Source of the DNA: a virus
Direction: 5' to 3' (one strand)
DNA: 31,758 nucleotides
Virus record (IMG/VR): IMGVR_UViG_3300008055_000060
Coordinates: 1 to 31,758 of that record
Positions 1,970 to 14,500 of this stretch are shown here, in pieces (position 1 is the stretch's first letter; each line of letters starts with the position of its first letter). The position numbers and the translations under genes were made by a program. The notes under the pieces are model-generated. The model made no database searches and was not told the origin of the DNA. It saw only the letters and a list, made by a program, of their open reading frames with translations.

Positions 1970-3347
1970 GTACCAGAAAGAAGCTGTAAAGTTTCTGGTG
2001 GAAAAAGGCTCGGCAGCTTTATGGCTGGATCCCGGGCTTGGTAAAACAGCTGTTGTGCTATCGGCTTTCAGAATCCTAAAGCTTAAAGGCATGGCCAAGA
2101 AAATGCTGGTCATTGCTCCACTTAGGCCTGTGCATGGCGTGTGGCCGCCTGAAGCTAAGAAGTGGGAACAGTTTGCGGATTACTCCGTTGGCGTGCTGCA
2201 TGGTGGAACCAAGGCTAAAGTCTTAAAGCAGCAGCATGACATATACGTTATCAACTTTGAAGGCCTTGGCTGGCTATCTTCGCAACTTAATGGCAAAGAT
2301 TGGCCCTTCCAAATCCTGACGGTGGATGAGATATCTTATATGAAAAACACGCAAACTCAGCGGTTTAAAACAATAAAGCCTTTGCTGGACAAGTTTGACC
2401 GCAGGTGGGGTTTAACCGGATCTCCAGCTCCAAACAGCTTGCTTGACATCTTTGGCCCGCAGCTAATCCTTGACCAAGGGGCTACCTTTGGCCCTTACAT
2501 CTCACGATTCAGAACAGAATACTTCTTCCCTTCCGGTTACGGCGGGTACGAGTGGAAGCTGCAATCTGATGGTGAGGCTAGGATCCATGCGGCGTTGGCT
2601 GGCAAAGTGCTTCGTATGGCGGCGCTGGACCATCTAGATTTGCCTGAGTTAACTTATAACGACATTATGGTAGATCTACCCCCTAATGCCAGAAAACTGT
2701 ACGACGCCTTTGAAAACAACCTGACCGTAGAATTGAATAGCGGGAATGTAACGGCTGTCAACGCTGCCGTGGCCGTAATGAAAGGCCAGCAAATTGCCAA
2801 TGGTGGCTCATACTTGGATGATGATGGGAGTGGTAATGCTAGAATCTCAACGCACCTTCATGACGCGAAGACTGAAGCGGTTCTCGATCTGGTCGAGGAG
2901 CTATCAGGCCAACCTTGCATCATCGGTTATCATTTTGCGCATGACCTCGAGAGGCTTAAGGCTGCCTTTCCTAATGCGCCTATCATTGGCAGTGGGGTTG
3001 TTGGTCGTAAACTTGATTCTATTATTGATGATTGGAACGCCGGTAAGACATCAGTTCTTTTGGCTCACCCAATGTCGGCGGGTCACGGTCTTAACTTACA
3101 AGGTACTGGGCATGCTGTCATCTGGTACTCGCTGACTTGGAGCCTTGAGATCTACGAGCAGTTTATTCGCAGACTCTGGAGGCAGGGTCAAAAGAATCAT
3201 ATTGTTGTGCACCACATCATGGCCAAAGATACCATTGATGAAGCCATTATGATGGCCATCAGGCGAAAAGATAAAACGCAGCAAACTTTGTTAACCGCAG
3301 TGCGTGACTACGTTAATCGTGATACAATCAATCCCGTTGACCATTGA
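1950..3347 (+). CDS. SNF2/DEAD-like superfamily 2 helicase
   Basis: ATP-dependent DNA helicase or translocase of 465 residues. Motifs are LDPGLGKT (Walker A, residues 26-33), LTVDEISYMKN (Walker B, Asp126-Glu127), GLTGSPAPN (motif III, 154-162), the linker VLLAHPMSAGHGLNLQGTGH (motif V region) and YEQFIRRLWRQGQ (motif VI arginines). The ATG at 1950 has AAGGAAGG upstream and overlaps the VRR-NUC gene by 20 bp. Upstream in-frame codons starting at 1905 lack a good site. The order, with an HXXYQ-type start and the HGLNLQ and RRLWRQGQ blocks, is typical of phage SNF2-like helicases. It likely remodels DNA for replication or recombination together with the adjacent nucleases. Confidence 0.93.
   Translation: MFWEPHEYQKEAVKFLVEKGSAALWLDPGLGKTAVVLSAFRILKLKGMAKKMLVIAPLRPVHGVWPPEAKKWEQFADYSVGVLHGGTKAKVLKQQHDIYVINFEGLGWLSSQLNGKDWPFQILTVDEISYMKNTQTQRFKTIKPLLDKFDRRWGLTGSPAPNSLLDIFGPQLILDQGATFGPYISRFRTEYFFPSGYGGYEWKLQSDGEARIHAALAGKVLRMAALDHLDLPELTYNDIMVDLPPNARKLYDAFENNLTVELNSGNVTAVNAAVAVMKGQQIANGGSYLDDDGSGNARISTHLHDAKTEAVLDLVEELSGQPCIIGYHFAHDLERLKAAFPNAPIIGSGVVGRKLDSIIDDWNAGKTSVLLAHPMSAGHGLNLQGTGHAVIWYSLTWSLEIYEQFIRRLWRQGQKNHIVVHHIMAKDTIDEAIMMAIRRKDKTQQTLLTAVRDYVNRDTINPVDH
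3318..3328 (+). promoter_or_regulatory. probable extended -10 promoter
   Basis: TGATACAAT (TGnTACAAT, 3320-3328) lies in the last codons of the helicase gene, 31 bp before the next start. It closely matches the element TGATATAAT at 6372-6380 that precedes another leader of the same kind. No convincing -35 is seen, which is normal for extended -10 promoters. Inferred from motif and repetition only. Confidence 0.45.
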
Positions 3348-3354
3348 AAGGAAT
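3341..3354 (+). promoter_or_regulatory. conserved leader with GAAAGGA ribosome binding site
   Basis: CCATTGAAAGGAAT just ahead of the ATG at 3359 repeats the leader seen before the genes at 6436 and 6693, and in shorter form (ATTGAAAGG) before 1053. GAAAGGA would pair with a 16S rRNA tail of the CCUCCUUUC type. Confidence 0.6.
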
Positions 3355-5455: not shown

Positions 5456-6215
5456 GCCTGAGCTCATCAATCTTTACAACGTGCTGCAGCAGCATGGCAC
5501 TTGGACAAGTCCGCGTGGTGAACGGTGCCTTGAGATTGAGAACTTTACTTATACGGTCAACCCCTTTGTAAGGTTCAACTCATTCAAAGGTCGTAACTTC
5601 AATGTGAAGTACCTTAAGCGCGAAATGTCTTGGTACATCAACGCTGACCCGTATGACCTTAGCATTGCAGAGCATGCAGCGCAGTGGGGCAAGATCGTTG
5701 CCAACGGTAAGTTGAATAGCAACTACGGCAGTTATTGGTTTGGCAAACATGGCGCTCTGCATATTGCAAAGCTGCTCACGCAGGATCCAATGTCCCGTCG
5801 TGCAGTGATTCCAATGTACGGCACTGACATAGACCATATGGATATAGAGGCGAAGGATGTTCCATGCACGCTGGCCATTGAGTTCCGGATCAGGAATGGC
5901 CGGTTGAACGCCAGAGCCATCATGCGAAGCCAAGATATTCTTTGGGGCATGGCAAATGACTTGCCAACTTTTAGCTTTCTGCAGGAAATTGTGGCTAACT
6001 TGGTTGGCGCTGAGATGGGAACATTGACAATATCAGCTGGGTCATTCCATGTGTATGAGTCTCGATTGGCCATGTTCAATGACATCATCAACACCAATAT
6101 CCATGAAGAGCTTATTGACAAGCCACCACGGATCAATAGGTATGAGGCCAATCTTTTGGCAGGCAAATCCATCAACCCTACTTTTGAGTTTGCAAAATGG
6201 CTATTGAACGTGTAG
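5433..6215 (+). CDS. thymidylate synthase-family protein, probable deoxypyrimidine hydroxymethylase
   Basis: 260-residue ThyA-family enzyme. Visible motifs are DVPCTLAIEF with the nucleophile Cys145, RAIMRSQDILWG with the phosphate-binding Arg165-Ser166, and SAGSFHVYES with His206 and Tyr208. Aligning RSQDILWGMANDLPTF with E. coli RSCDVFLGLPFNIASY puts Asp176 opposite Asn177, the residue that selects dUMP. T4 dCMP hydroxymethylase has Asp179 here, and Asn-to-Asp exchange in synthases shifts preference to dCMP. The likely reaction is therefore folate-dependent hydroxymethylation (or methylation) of dCMP, not dTMP synthesis. It overlaps the kinase by 23 bp. The family is certain and the substrate is inferred. 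A dUMP-specific enzyme remains possible. Confidence 0.85.
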   Translation: MEMLIRNEPELINLYNVLQQHGTWTSPRGERCLEIENFTYTVNPFVRFNSFKGRNFNVKYLKREMSWYINADPYDLSIAEHAAQWGKIVANGKLNSNYGSYWFGKHGALHIAKLLTQDPMSRRAVIPMYGTDIDHMDIEAKDVPCTLAIEFRIRNGRLNARAIMRSQDILWGMANDLPTFSFLQEIVANLVGAEMGTLTISAGSFHVYESRLAMFNDIINTNIHEELIDKPPRINRYEANLLAGKSINPTFEFAKWLLNV

Positions 6216-6379
6216 ATTTATCATTCGCTGTTCAAAAAGAACTTAGAATATTTGCTTTTGAACTTATTCGTGACGGTTATCAAATGGAGGATATACTGAC
6301 GGCATTGGCCGCTCTAAAAGTGGAAATGGCTTCGGCCATGGTTTGGCAAGATGTACTAAGTACAAAAGACGTGATATAA
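6197..6379 (+). CDS. hypothetical protein, 60 aa
   Basis: Starts at ATG 6197 within the last codons of the thymidylate-synthase homologue (19-bp overlap). Sequence MAIERVDLSFAVQKEL... with two probable amphipathic helices (ELIRDGYQMEDILTALAALKVEM). It has no membrane or catalytic motifs. The TAA stop at 6377-6379 lies within a palindromic -10-like element, so the end of this gene and the next promoter overlap. Coupling to the modification block suggests a helper role, but nothing more can be said. The family is not recognised. Confidence 0.65.
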   Translation: MAIERVDLSFAVQKELRIFAFELIRDGYQMEDILTALAALKVEMASAMVWQDVLSTKDVI

Positions 6380-6386
6380 TTCACGT
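6369..6386 (+). promoter_or_regulatory. palindromic extended -10 promoter/operator
   Basis: ACGTGATATAATTCACGT has six-base inverted arms (6369-6374 and 6381-6386) around a perfect TATAAT, and TGA in front of it makes an extended -10. A symmetrical box centred on the -10 could be bound by a dimeric repressor. A sister site without the right arm occurs at 3320-3328. Regulation is inferred. Confidence 0.6.
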
Positions 6387-6403
6387 TATGGGATACCCCC
6401 ATA
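6387..6403 (+). promoter_or_regulatory. 5' leader stem-loop
   Basis: TATGGG and CCCATA pair over a five-base loop, directly after the palindromic promoter. If transcription starts about seven bases after the -10, the hairpin would form the very 5' end of the mRNA, a position known to protect transcripts from decay. It lies 33 bp upstream of the ATG at 6436. Confidence 0.45.
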
Positions 6404-6430
6404 CTTTGTAAATTGACTATTGAAAGGAAT
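6403..6430 (+). repeat. 28-bp direct repeat, copy 1
   Basis: Perfect 28-bp match to 6661-6688. It contains TTGACTATTGAAAGGAAT, that is, a stop codon plus the conserved ribosome binding leader. The two copies begin 258 bp apart and bracket the small gene at 6436-6669. Confidence 0.9.
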
Positions 6431-6435
6431 ACAGC

Positions 6436-6669
6436 ATGAGAACAAAATCAATTATTGCAGCAACGTTTGGCCTAGACTCTAATGATGTTGAAGAGTATCG
6501 TTATCAGTCTACCAGAACGCGTCAAGCAATTTATGCGATTGGTAATTACTACTTTACTTGTGGAAAAAGAAGACCTAAAGACGAAGTAGGCGCAGAATGG
6601 CAAATGGACAAAGATCAGTTTTGGGCTACACAAAACAAGACTGTTCTTTGGAGTTCTAAAACTTTGTAA
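6436..6669 (+). CDS. hypothetical protein, 77 aa, cassette between direct repeats
   Basis: ATG at 6436 follows the GAAAGGA site in the first direct repeat. Its stop codon (6667-6669) lies in the second repeat. Sequence MRTKSIIAATFGLDSND... has aromatic-rich middle (AIYAIGNYYFTCGKRRP) and acidic-basic C-terminus with Trp residues (EWQMDKDQFWATQNK). The small size and compact aromatic core would suit a small host-takeover or anti-defence protein, but there is no evidence beyond its position behind its own promoter. The flanking repeats mean recombination could remove it cleanly. The family is not recognised. Confidence 0.75.
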   Translation: MRTKSIIAATFGLDSNDVEEYRYQSTRTRQAIYAIGNYYFTCGKRRPKDEVGAEWQMDKDQFWATQNKTVLWSSKTL

Positions 6670-6688
6670 ATTGACTATTGAAAGGAAT
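6661..6688 (+). repeat. 28-bp direct repeat, copy 2
   Basis: Perfect match to 6403-6430. It covers the last codons of the 77-aa gene and supplies the ribosome binding site of the gene that begins at 6693. Confidence 0.9.
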
Positions 6689-6692
6689 TGAA

Positions 6693-7403
6693 ATGCTACA
6701 TAAAACCCATTGGACACCAGTAGAACGCAACCTTGTCATTGAGACTGCGGTGACCTTCTACAATGAAGGTACCTACAGCCCCATTGCAGCAATTAGACAA
6801 GCTCAGCAAATTGTGCTATTACCTAATCGCCGCCGTACACTTGCTAGTCACTCAGCAGCGCCTGACTTGATCAAATTGCTCAAGCAAAAAGCTGCGCAGA
6901 AGGTGCCAACGCAAAAGGTGGTAGTTTCTACCACACCTGTGAAAATAATGACCCCAGCGCCACCGGTAGTGGTTAAAACCGATGCACCAGTTGATCTCGT
7001 TGAGCAGTTGGTGAATACTATTACACAACGATTCATTCTGGGGCTTCGTGAAAGCCTGCAGATTGCAGTCAGAGAGCTTGAGCATGAGTTTAAGATTGAA
7101 AAGCACAATCCAACGTATGGCGCATCTGGCAAGTCATTGCCTAAAGTGGTTATCATCGGTTTGCTGGGTGATCAGGTCCACGCCATCACCAAAGAATACT
7201 CTGACCGGTACGAGGTAAAATGTATTGACACCGACAGAGCCATGGGTATGTCACCGCCACAAGCTAATGCATACCTTTTGATGAAGAACTTCATCAACCA
7301 CCCGCTGTACCACAAGTACCAAGCATTCCCTAATCATGTTTTAATAGACGGCGGCATGTCAACCCTACGCATGTGGCTCAATACTAAAGGACAAGACTTA
7401 TGA
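6693..7403 (+). CDS. hypothetical protein, 236 aa, helical N-terminus and Rossmann-like C-terminus
   Basis: ATG at 6693 is placed after the second leader repeat. An in-frame start at 6678 is not preferred. Residues 1-60 (TPVERNLVIETAVTFYNEG, AAIRQAQQIVL) look like a helical DNA- or protein-binding region. Residues 65-105 are a Pro/Val/Thr-rich linker (TPAPPVVVKTDAPVDLVEQ). The C-terminal part contains LPKVVIIGLLGDQVHAI and YEVKCIDTD, a beta-strand, Gly-rich loop and helix typical of Rossmann-like folds, ending with HVLIDGGMSTLRMWL. This could be a regulator or a nucleotide-binding protein. The stop overlaps the next ATG. No confident family is known to me. Confidence 0.75.
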   Translation: MLHKTHWTPVERNLVIETAVTFYNEGTYSPIAAIRQAQQIVLLPNRRRTLASHSAAPDLIKLLKQKAAQKVPTQKVVVSTTPVKIMTPAPPVVVKTDAPVDLVEQLVNTITQRFILGLRESLQIAVRELEHEFKIEKHNPTYGASGKSLPKVVIIGLLGDQVHAITKEYSDRYEVKCIDTDRAMGMSPPQANAYLLMKNFINHPLYHKYQAFPNHVLIDGGMSTLRMWLNTKGQDL

Positions 7404-11543: not shown

Positions 11544-14500
11544 TTCATGCCTTTCAAATACGACAGGGGTGACTTAGCTTTAGGTGGTATTTTACCCACT
11601 GGGGCTGATCTTTTGTGTTCTCTTATGCTTTCACGCATTTTATCCAAAACTTGGGCACCAGCCTTATTTGAGCCATTGCCTAATGCCGCAACCGTATCCG
11701 CGTCAAACACGTACTCGCCATCCGCCAACATGGCCGGTATGCTATCTGACTGGCCATCACCTGCCCCTTGCACGTAATTGCCGGTCTTTCCAGTGATGAA
11801 CTCGGGAATATGCTCTACTTGGCCGCCTTTAGCAAATCCTGCCAATGGGCTTCCACCAAGATATTTTAATCCTGCCGATGTCATATTGCCTGTGTCGTAC
11901 CCAGGAATCATTGTGCTGTTGTCGTTGCCGCTTACAGGATTCCCGGGAGATGGCGCACCTGCAAGCTTAGAGCCAACAAAGCTAGTGCCTTCTTCAGTTT
12001 CAGCAGCTTCTATCGTGGCAGGTTTGATGCGACCAGTTAAGACTTGCAATAGCTTGGGGTCCACATTAGCCAGTTGCGGGTAGAGTTGCGCAAGTTGTGC
12101 CATTCCAGAATCATCCTTAATTCCTGCGCCAGCCAGCATTGTTGGTGTCAATGTCCCGGGCAACGCGCCAGTACTTGCTGGAGTTGTTAAAGAGCCTAGT
12201 GCGCCTGACTGTTGCTGCTTTGTAGGCGTCTTTGTAGGCGTTGTAATTTTTGTAGTTTTTGTAGGGTCTGTAGTTTTTGTAGGATCTACAGGAGGCACAA
12301 CTTCAGGCGGCACAACAGGTGGCACTTCAGGCGGCACAACTGGAGGTACAGGTGGTACTACAGGCGGCACAACTGGAGGAACTGGTGGTACTACAGGCAA
12401 AGCACCGGGTGGTACTGTTGGCAAGTCTGTGTTAACACTAGGATTTACGTTCGGGTTAACGTTAGGATTTACATTCGGGTTTACGTTAGGATTTACATTC
12501 GGGTTTACGTTAGGATTTACATTCGGGTTAACGTTAGGATTTACATTCGGGTTAACGTTAGGATTTACATTCGGGTTAACGTTAGGATTTACGTTAGGAT
12601 TTACATTCGGGTTAACGTTAGGATTTACATTCGGGTTGGATGTAACCGTAGACAGGGGGTTAGTTGTGGGGTTAACCGTTGGGTTGACTGTTGGATTTGC
12701 CAACGGGTTGGTTAAAACCGCAGCATTGGCATCCGCGGCAGCATTGGCATCCGCGGCAGCTTTAGCGTCAGCTGCAGCCTTGGCATCCGCTGCAGCCTTG
12801 GCATCCGCGGCAGCTTTAGCATCAGCAGCAGCCTTAGCGGCAGCCAATGCTGCTAATGTATTATTTGTTGTACTTGTTACAGCAGGTGTACTTGTTACAG
12901 TAGCTGCAGTTGCTGCATCGGCGGCAGCCTTAGCGTCAGCAGCAGCCTTAGCGTCAGCAGCAGCCTTAGCGTCAGCAGCAGCTTTAGCATCAGCAGCCAC
13001 TTGCGCAGCAGTTGCTGCATCCGCAGCGGCCTTAGTATCCGCGGCAGCTTTTGCATCAGCAGCAACCTTAGCATCAGCAGCGGCTTGCGCAGCCACAGCG
13101 GCGGCGGCTTCAGCGGCTGCAACTGCCTCAGCTTTAGTGGCAGCATCTGCACTAGCAGCAGCGTCCGCAGCAGCCTTGGCATCCGCAGCAGCCTTAGCGG
13201 CAGCGGCAGCCGCAGCATCAGACGCCGCTTTAGCATCCGCAGCTGCTTGCGCGTTGGCTGCTGCAAGGGCATCGGCTTTTACTTTTGCCTCTGCAGCCAA
13301 TGCTGCGTCAATTGCCACTTGCGCACTTGTGTCTGCGCCTGTTGTTACTGTGGCGCCTGTACCTGCTGTTGTAGTAGCCCCGGTGCCTACAGTACTTAAA
13401 GCCCCAGTACCAGTTGCTGCAGTAGTATTTGCGCCTGCTGTAGTAGCCCCGGTACCAGCTGTACTTAAGGCACCAGTCCCTGTTGTAGTGTTACCGCCAC
13501 CTACTGTAGCTAGCGCACCAGTGTCTGCAACTGTAGTTGCTGCTTGATTTTTTGATGCAATTGCAGCGCTAACGTCGCTTAGACTTAACCCAGCTTCAGC
13601 CATGGCAGTGCCAATTTCAGCTTGTGTGGCGTCAGGGTTAGCATCTAGCCAAGCGTTAATGCTATTGTTGACGTCAGCTACAGAGATGTTATTGTCTTGC
13701 GCATATTGCATGCCTGCGCTTGTAAGATTTAAGTTTGAGTTAGCTTCGCCAATATTAGCTAAAGTTTGCGCGCCTGCATCACTTAATACAGACTGCCCAG
13801 TTGATGCGTCTACTAATGAGTCAATTCTACCTGAGCCATTAGTGGATGCAATGCCTGCTTTGCTAAGCTCTTCATTAAGCGTGGTGTTTGTCTCTGCAAT
13901 AACATTTTGAATGTTTGAGACTTCAATAGATGATGAAGTCTTACCTGCAACAAGACCCTCAATCACGCCTTGTGTCAACGACTTATTGATATTTACAGGT
14001 CGGCCTAGCGCAACGTCTGTAAGAACATCGGTTGTAAATGCCTCAATAAGATCGGATGTGCCTTCTTTCGTAAAGCTAGCACCTGCTTTGGTTGTTGCTT
14101 TACTAAGCGCGTTGCTAACTTTGTTAACCAAAGCAGCGTCTGTAACACCGCCGGTAGCTACAGTAACAGCGGCTGCAATCTGAAACGCTGTTGTTGCCTC
14201 AGCGTCGGCTTGTGTTTCAGATTTACCTGCTGCCCTAGCCTCTCTGTATTTATCATTATAAGCCGCGCCGCCTGATTCCATGGCGTTCAAACCAACGTCA
14301 GTTCCTATGGCAGCAAATTTGCCTGCGTACTTAAGCACTTTAAGACCTAAGCCAATTGGCAAACCTTCTTGAATAACCTCAATAGCCGCCATATTGAGAG
14401 ACAGCGGGTTATTCCAAACAGCTTTTACGCCTGCAACAATCTTATTGCCTACGCCATCGGCGTCGTTAACTGCTTGAATAACATTTTGGTTGGCTTGATT

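What the first reader, a model, noticed from the sequence alone, without database searches (positions are those of the whole stretch)
6403..6688. 28-bp perfect repeats bracket a 77-aa gene and its own ribosome site
Recombination between 6403-6430 and 6661-6688 would delete one gene (6436-6669) exactly and leave the promoter joined to the next gene with a correct leader. That is a modular cassette slot in which small accessory genes could be gained or lost, possibly a source of anti-defence genes.
Basis: seen in the sequence. Interest (0 to 1): 0.6.

Follow-up and report, generated by a model that had tools for sequence, protein, structure and literature searches.

The report
Leader-duplicated accessory gene slot in phage
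In a group of uncultured phages many small genes start with the same short leader sequence, and in this genome an extra small gene sits between two identical leader copies, while 48 related contigs show the same spot empty with one copy, which suggests a plug-in site for optional genes.

Summary
The 28/28 repeat (6403-6430, 6661-6688) brackets a real 77-aa gene. The window is an IMG/VR virus contig. Only the window and contig 3300023174_003400 are occupied, so a gain is the simplest history. Their shared haplotype runs 88 nt into the next gene, where the trees change (upstream sisters 100/99; downstream sisterhood rejected, AU p = 0.0001), so recombination has acted beside the slot.

The repeat is one copy of a family-wide start-associated leader, TTGAYTATTGAAAGGWA, often preceded by TATAAT and a variable hairpin. 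It heads 182 distinct proteins in 27 families in the collected loci. A second site (DUF932 gene to 170-aa gene) holds 0, 1 or 2 leader-headed small genes. Closest known: SAS/ESAS of cluster K mycobacteriophages and PeSL cassettes of T4-type phages.

The 77-aa protein has distant homologues in four unrelated phages and no known function; the anti-defence idea has no support. New variant of a known kind: the slot is well supported by comparison, its molecular mechanism is inferred.

The parts
6375..6380 (+). -10-like TATAAT; the stop codon of the 60-aa ORF overlaps it
   Evidence: Seen in sequence; exact TATAAT kept before the leader in most relatives
6387..6403 (+). Stem-loop TATGGG-ATACC-CCCATA at the expected 5' end of the mRNA
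   Evidence: a stem is kept in many relatives although its sequence differs (GTGG/CCAC, TACAGC/GCTGTA, AGTACCGTAGGC/GTCTACGGTACT); a few relatives lack it
6403..6430 (+). Leader copy 1 (28 nt; core TTGACTATTGAAAGGAA at 6413-6429), start of gene 77
6436..6669 (+). Accessory gene, 77 aa; present only here and in IMGVR_UViG_3300023174_003400 among relatives
   Evidence: homologues in Xanthomonas phage Rb1, Rhodobacter phage RcXuper, Dolichospermum phage Dfl-JY45, Bacillus phage SBSphiC
6661..6688 (+). Leader copy 2; its first 9 nt end gene 77 with its stop codon; start of the next gene
6693..7403 (+). Downstream gene (236-237 aa, unknown function), directly after the single leader in relatives
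   Evidence: no Pfam, PHROG or fold match
6197..6379 (+). 60-aa ORF before the promoter, itself absent in some relatives (thyA then ends at the -10 box)
3337..3353 (+). Third leader copy in the window (TTGACCATTGAAAGGAA), heading a 90-aa gene after the SNF2-type helicase
6278..6777 (+). Shared block: only 2 differences between the two occupied contigs; the downstream tree changes after it

Best explanation
This is an occupied accessory-gene slot at an operon head. These phages start many early/replication-side genes with one conserved leader (TTGAYTATTGAAAGGWA, a few nt before ATG), at operon heads usually behind a -10 box and a short hairpin. Shown by comparison: an ancestor of the window and one sister contig acquired a 258-nt unit (gene 77 plus one leader), so the promoter now precedes leader-gene77-leader-orf237; other relatives have the single-leader, empty form; leader-headed small genes also vary at a second site. 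Inferred: the unit was gained by recombination or template switching that copied this lineage's own leader, because the repeat includes ACTTTGTAA, which only the close clade has there. The flanking copies let homologous recombination or strand annealing remove or exchange the gene without harming expression of the next gene, since either product has one correct leader before each start codon. The leader core itself most likely works as a translation-initiation region (AAAGGA Shine-Dalgarno core).
For: Perfect repeat, chance 0. Exact single-leader form in 48 contigs, 18 of them close. Two contigs carry the same insertion, so it is not an assembly error. Parsimony and the upstream tree give one gain. 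dS of gene 77 is 0.04 against 0.18-0.25 in tmk, thyA and orf237. Topology change 88 nt into orf237, AU p 0.0001. Leader heads 182 distinct proteins in 27 families; 12 of 17 core columns at least 95% conserved. Second slot: 11 of 30 distinct spacers carry one or two leader-headed small genes, 19 none. Another leader-plus-hairpin duplication brackets a 103-aa gene in contig 3300006109_000045 (L086). Homologues of gene 77 elsewhere lack this leader and flanking repeats, so the leader belongs to this phage family, not to the gene. The phages carry an exonuclease (PDDEXK_1/phrog_69) and a Mu Gam-like protein.
Against: The step of insertion was not seen and no donor with the same leader-gene77 unit was found. 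No single-strand annealing protein was recognised. The low divergence near the slot partly reflects general conservation of the 60-aa ORF and promoter in all relatives. At the second slot the flanking leaders share only about 13-17 nt, so homologous recombination is less obvious there. Leader copies were chosen by the motif itself (up to 3 mismatches), so the conservation figures are partly circular.
Confidence: 0.78

Rival explanations
1. The two-leader form is ancestral and the gene was lost by leader recombination in other lineages.
For: Single-leader forms are exactly what such a deletion would leave.
Against: It needs many independent losses, including in relatives whose downstream protein is only about 40-50% identical; the two occupied contigs are sisters in the upstream tree.
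Confidence: 0.07
2. The 28-nt duplication is a target-site duplication made by an enzyme-driven mobile element or integron-like cassette.
For: Insertion of a unit flanked by a direct duplication of pre-existing target sequence.
Against: The unit holds only a 77-aa gene, with no transposase, integrase, homing endonuclease or attC-like hairpin; homologues elsewhere have no flanking repeats; 28 nt is long for a target-site duplication and matches a functional leader.
Confidence: 0.05
3. The repeats are only two ordinary ribosome-binding leaders kept similar by selection; the site is not a recombination slot.
For: The 17-nt core is conserved at many genes in the family.
Against: Identity extends 9 nt upstream of the core (ACTTTGTAA), a part not conserved in the wider family; in copy 2 this part lies in a coding end; empty and occupied states both exist.
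Confidence: 0.1

Closest known systems
Start-associated sequences (SAS) and extended SAS of cluster K mycobacteriophages (PMC3203893)
   Same: Short asymmetric repeat a few nt before start codons, on the non-structural side, containing a Shine-Dalgarno core; a subset preceded by an inverted repeat; attached to different gene families in different relatives
   Different: Unrelated sequence (GGGATAGGAGCCC there); there the inverted-repeat sequence has a consensus, here the hairpin sequence varies and mainly the pairing is kept; here occupied and empty forms of one slot with identical leader copies are seen
PeSL promoter/stem-loop cassettes of T4-type phages (Arbiol et al. 2010; Comeau et al. 2014; titles seen in reference lists; content from my own knowledge)
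   Same: A repeated regulatory sequence between genes acts as a homology anchor for gain, loss and shuffling of small accessory genes
   Different: PeSLs carry an early promoter plus a stem-loop terminator; here the duplicated part is only the untranslated leader, the promoter and hairpin stay single
Morons of lambdoid phages (own knowledge)
   Same: A single extra gene inserted between two genes that are neighbours in relatives
   Different: Morons bring their own promoter and terminator; gene 77 uses the resident promoter

Membership tests
Start-associated sequence (SAS) of cluster K | Sequence GGGATAGGAGCCC | tested here: not met
   Core is TTGACTATTGAAAGGAA
Start-associated sequence (SAS) of cluster K | Several copies just upstream of start codons of non-structural genes | tested here: met
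   Within 3 mismatches, 4 copies in a near-complete relative (G003), on the replication side and a few nt before ATG
Start-associated sequence (SAS) of cluster K | Inverted repeat upstream in a subset (ESAS) | tested here: met
   Hairpins of varying sequence between -10 and leader in many, not all, elements
PeSL cassette of T4-type phages | Repeated unit contains an early promoter and stem-loop | tested here: not met
   Copy 2 has neither TATAAT nor the hairpin
PeSL cassette of T4-type phages | Gene content between units differs among relatives | tested here: met
Moron | Inserted gene with own promoter and terminator | tested here: not met
   No -10/hairpin with copy 2 and no terminator seen within 6436-6688 by reading
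Integron-type cassette or transposon | Recombinase/transposase or attC-like recombination site with the unit | tested here: not met
   The 258-nt unit holds only the 77-aa ORF and the leader
Anti-defence gene | Similarity to a known anti-defence family or a counter-defence phenotype | not testable with these tools
   No profile match; phenotype needs experiment

The most novel reading that the evidence does not exclude
The leader is a phage-family-wide tag, perhaps read by a phage-encoded RNA-binding or translation factor, that both guarantees expression of any newly arrived small gene and serves as the recombination dock, making plug-and-play slots at several operon heads.
Probability: 0.3. 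Interest if true: 0.65.

Novelty: new variant of a known kind. Interest (0 to 1): 0.52.

Why it matters
It gives a natural before-and-after pair for gene gain at a defined site in phages, with the leader as the shared part. The leader motif can be used to list the accessory genes of a large uncultured phage group from metagenomes, genes which are otherwise short and unrecognised, and it offers a testable rule for how phages add genes without breaking operon expression.

Tried and rejected
DNA search of the region in GenBank phages: no match. Plasmids: none. Gene 77 in bacterial genomes, and Rb1 or RcXuper homologues in viral or genome contigs, by short-peptide scan: none. Alignment of homologues was too diverse for a scan. 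Structure of gene 77 from one sequence: pLDDT 57, not used. Fold search of orf237: no match at E below 0.001. Orf237 in GenBank phages: none. Relatives cannot be drawn for virus records. Exact 18-mer hits after a tRNA-like sequence in L065/L073 encode only 15 aa and were taken as possible chance. A general scan for direct repeats that bracket small ORFs in relatives gave no other strong case except leader copies.

Full report
What is there. The repeat ACTTTGTAAATTGACTATTGAAAGGAAT stands at 6403-6430 and 6661-6688 without a mismatch and nowhere else in the window within 3 mismatches; shuffles give none. Between the copies is a 77-aa ORF (6436-6669), whose last codons and stop lie inside copy 2. 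Copy 1 follows TATAAT (6375-6380) and a hairpin (6387-6403); copy 2 follows coding sequence. The window is a 31,758-base IMG/VR virus record; neighbours are thymidylate kinase, a thymidylate synthase-like protein, a PDDEXK nuclease and an SNF2-type helicase.

Relatives. Fifty-six contigs encode relatives of the downstream protein and 64 encode relatives of the thymidylate synthase. Aligned at the slot, 48 contigs have one leader followed directly by the 237-aa gene; 18 of these are close relatives with the same 60-aa ORF, promoter, hairpin and leader. Only the window and contig 3300023174_003400 have two leaders and the 77-aa gene. Two contigs (L166, L167) have the leader followed by other small genes, and nine lack promoter, leader and orf237 altogether.

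History. In the upstream region the two occupied contigs are sisters (100/99); downstream of 6778 they are not, and holding them together is rejected (AU p = 0.0001). The block 6278-6777 has 2 differences between them, and the first 88 nt of orf237 are identical in the two but different from all empty relatives. dS of gene 77 is 0.04 against 0.18-0.25 in neighbouring genes, though the 60-aa ORF is also low (0.05) and is well conserved in all close relatives. One gain with later exchange next to the slot explains this. The part ACTTTGTAA of the repeat is found before the leader core only in the close clade, so the second leader was probably copied within this lineage (inference).

The leader. 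Scanning near-complete relatives showed the 17-nt core at several gene starts per genome, on the replication side, including a third copy in the window at 3337. At the operon heads a TATAAT or TACAAT and a short hairpin usually precede it; the hairpin sequence varies widely while pairing is kept in many, but some lack it. Shuffle tests are weak for the shortest single hairpins; the case for the hairpin rests on its recurrence at one place with different sequences.

A second slot. Between the DUF932 gene and a 170-aa gene (phrog_624), 19 of 30 distinct spacers hold no further leader-headed gene, 5 hold one and 6 hold two, of several families, each headed by its own leader (families). One of them (L242) may hold a further gene without a leader. 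Contig L086 has a longer duplication, hairpin included, around a 103-aa gene. This makes the finding one case of a wider pattern.

The gene. Four phages of other groups carry homologues at about 30% identity, hypothetical or unannotated. A profile from these four finds the window gene at 3e-16. They lack the leader and flanking repeats. Function is unknown; no library matched and the structure model was poor. I see no evidence for or against anti-defence.

Mechanism. Shown: occupied and empty forms, one gain, recombination beside the slot, a family-wide leader. Inferred: homologous recombination or annealing at the leader as the route of gain and loss, and a translation role for the leader. 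An exonuclease and a Mu Gam-like protein are encoded, but no annealing protein was recognised.

Comparison. It works like the PeSL cassettes of T4-type phages and looks like the SAS/ESAS of cluster K mycobacteriophages, but belongs to neither by sequence or by the extent of the repeated unit.

Noticed in passing
Loci L190, L218, L222, L225, L229, L232, L238, L240, L242, L254, L281: Variable small leader-headed genes (66-139 aa) between the DUF932 gene and a 170-aa phrog_624 gene; a second accessory slot.
   Followed up: partly
6197-6379 and relatives L126-L139, L145-L158: The 60-aa ORF before the promoter is missing in some relatives; there the stop codon of thyA lies at the -10 box, as the 60-aa ORF's stop does here.
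   Followed up: partly
L134, L140-L144, L157, L159, L160: The whole promoter-leader-orf237 block is absent after the thymidylate synthase gene or 60-aa ORF.
   Followed up: partly
L086:13487-13950: Leader plus hairpin duplicated around a 103-aa gene; the two genes also share a similar N-terminus (MAHQKSTT / MAWQKSTT).
   Followed up: no
L184:17225-17320, L269, L274: Leader-headed 63-aa genes directly after a tRNA-like sequence, without -10 or hairpin.
   Followed up: no
12407-13330 (minus-strand 1767-aa ORF): Long repeats inside a giant virion-side protein: NPNVNPNV units and [12 protein letters not shown] units.
   Followed up: no
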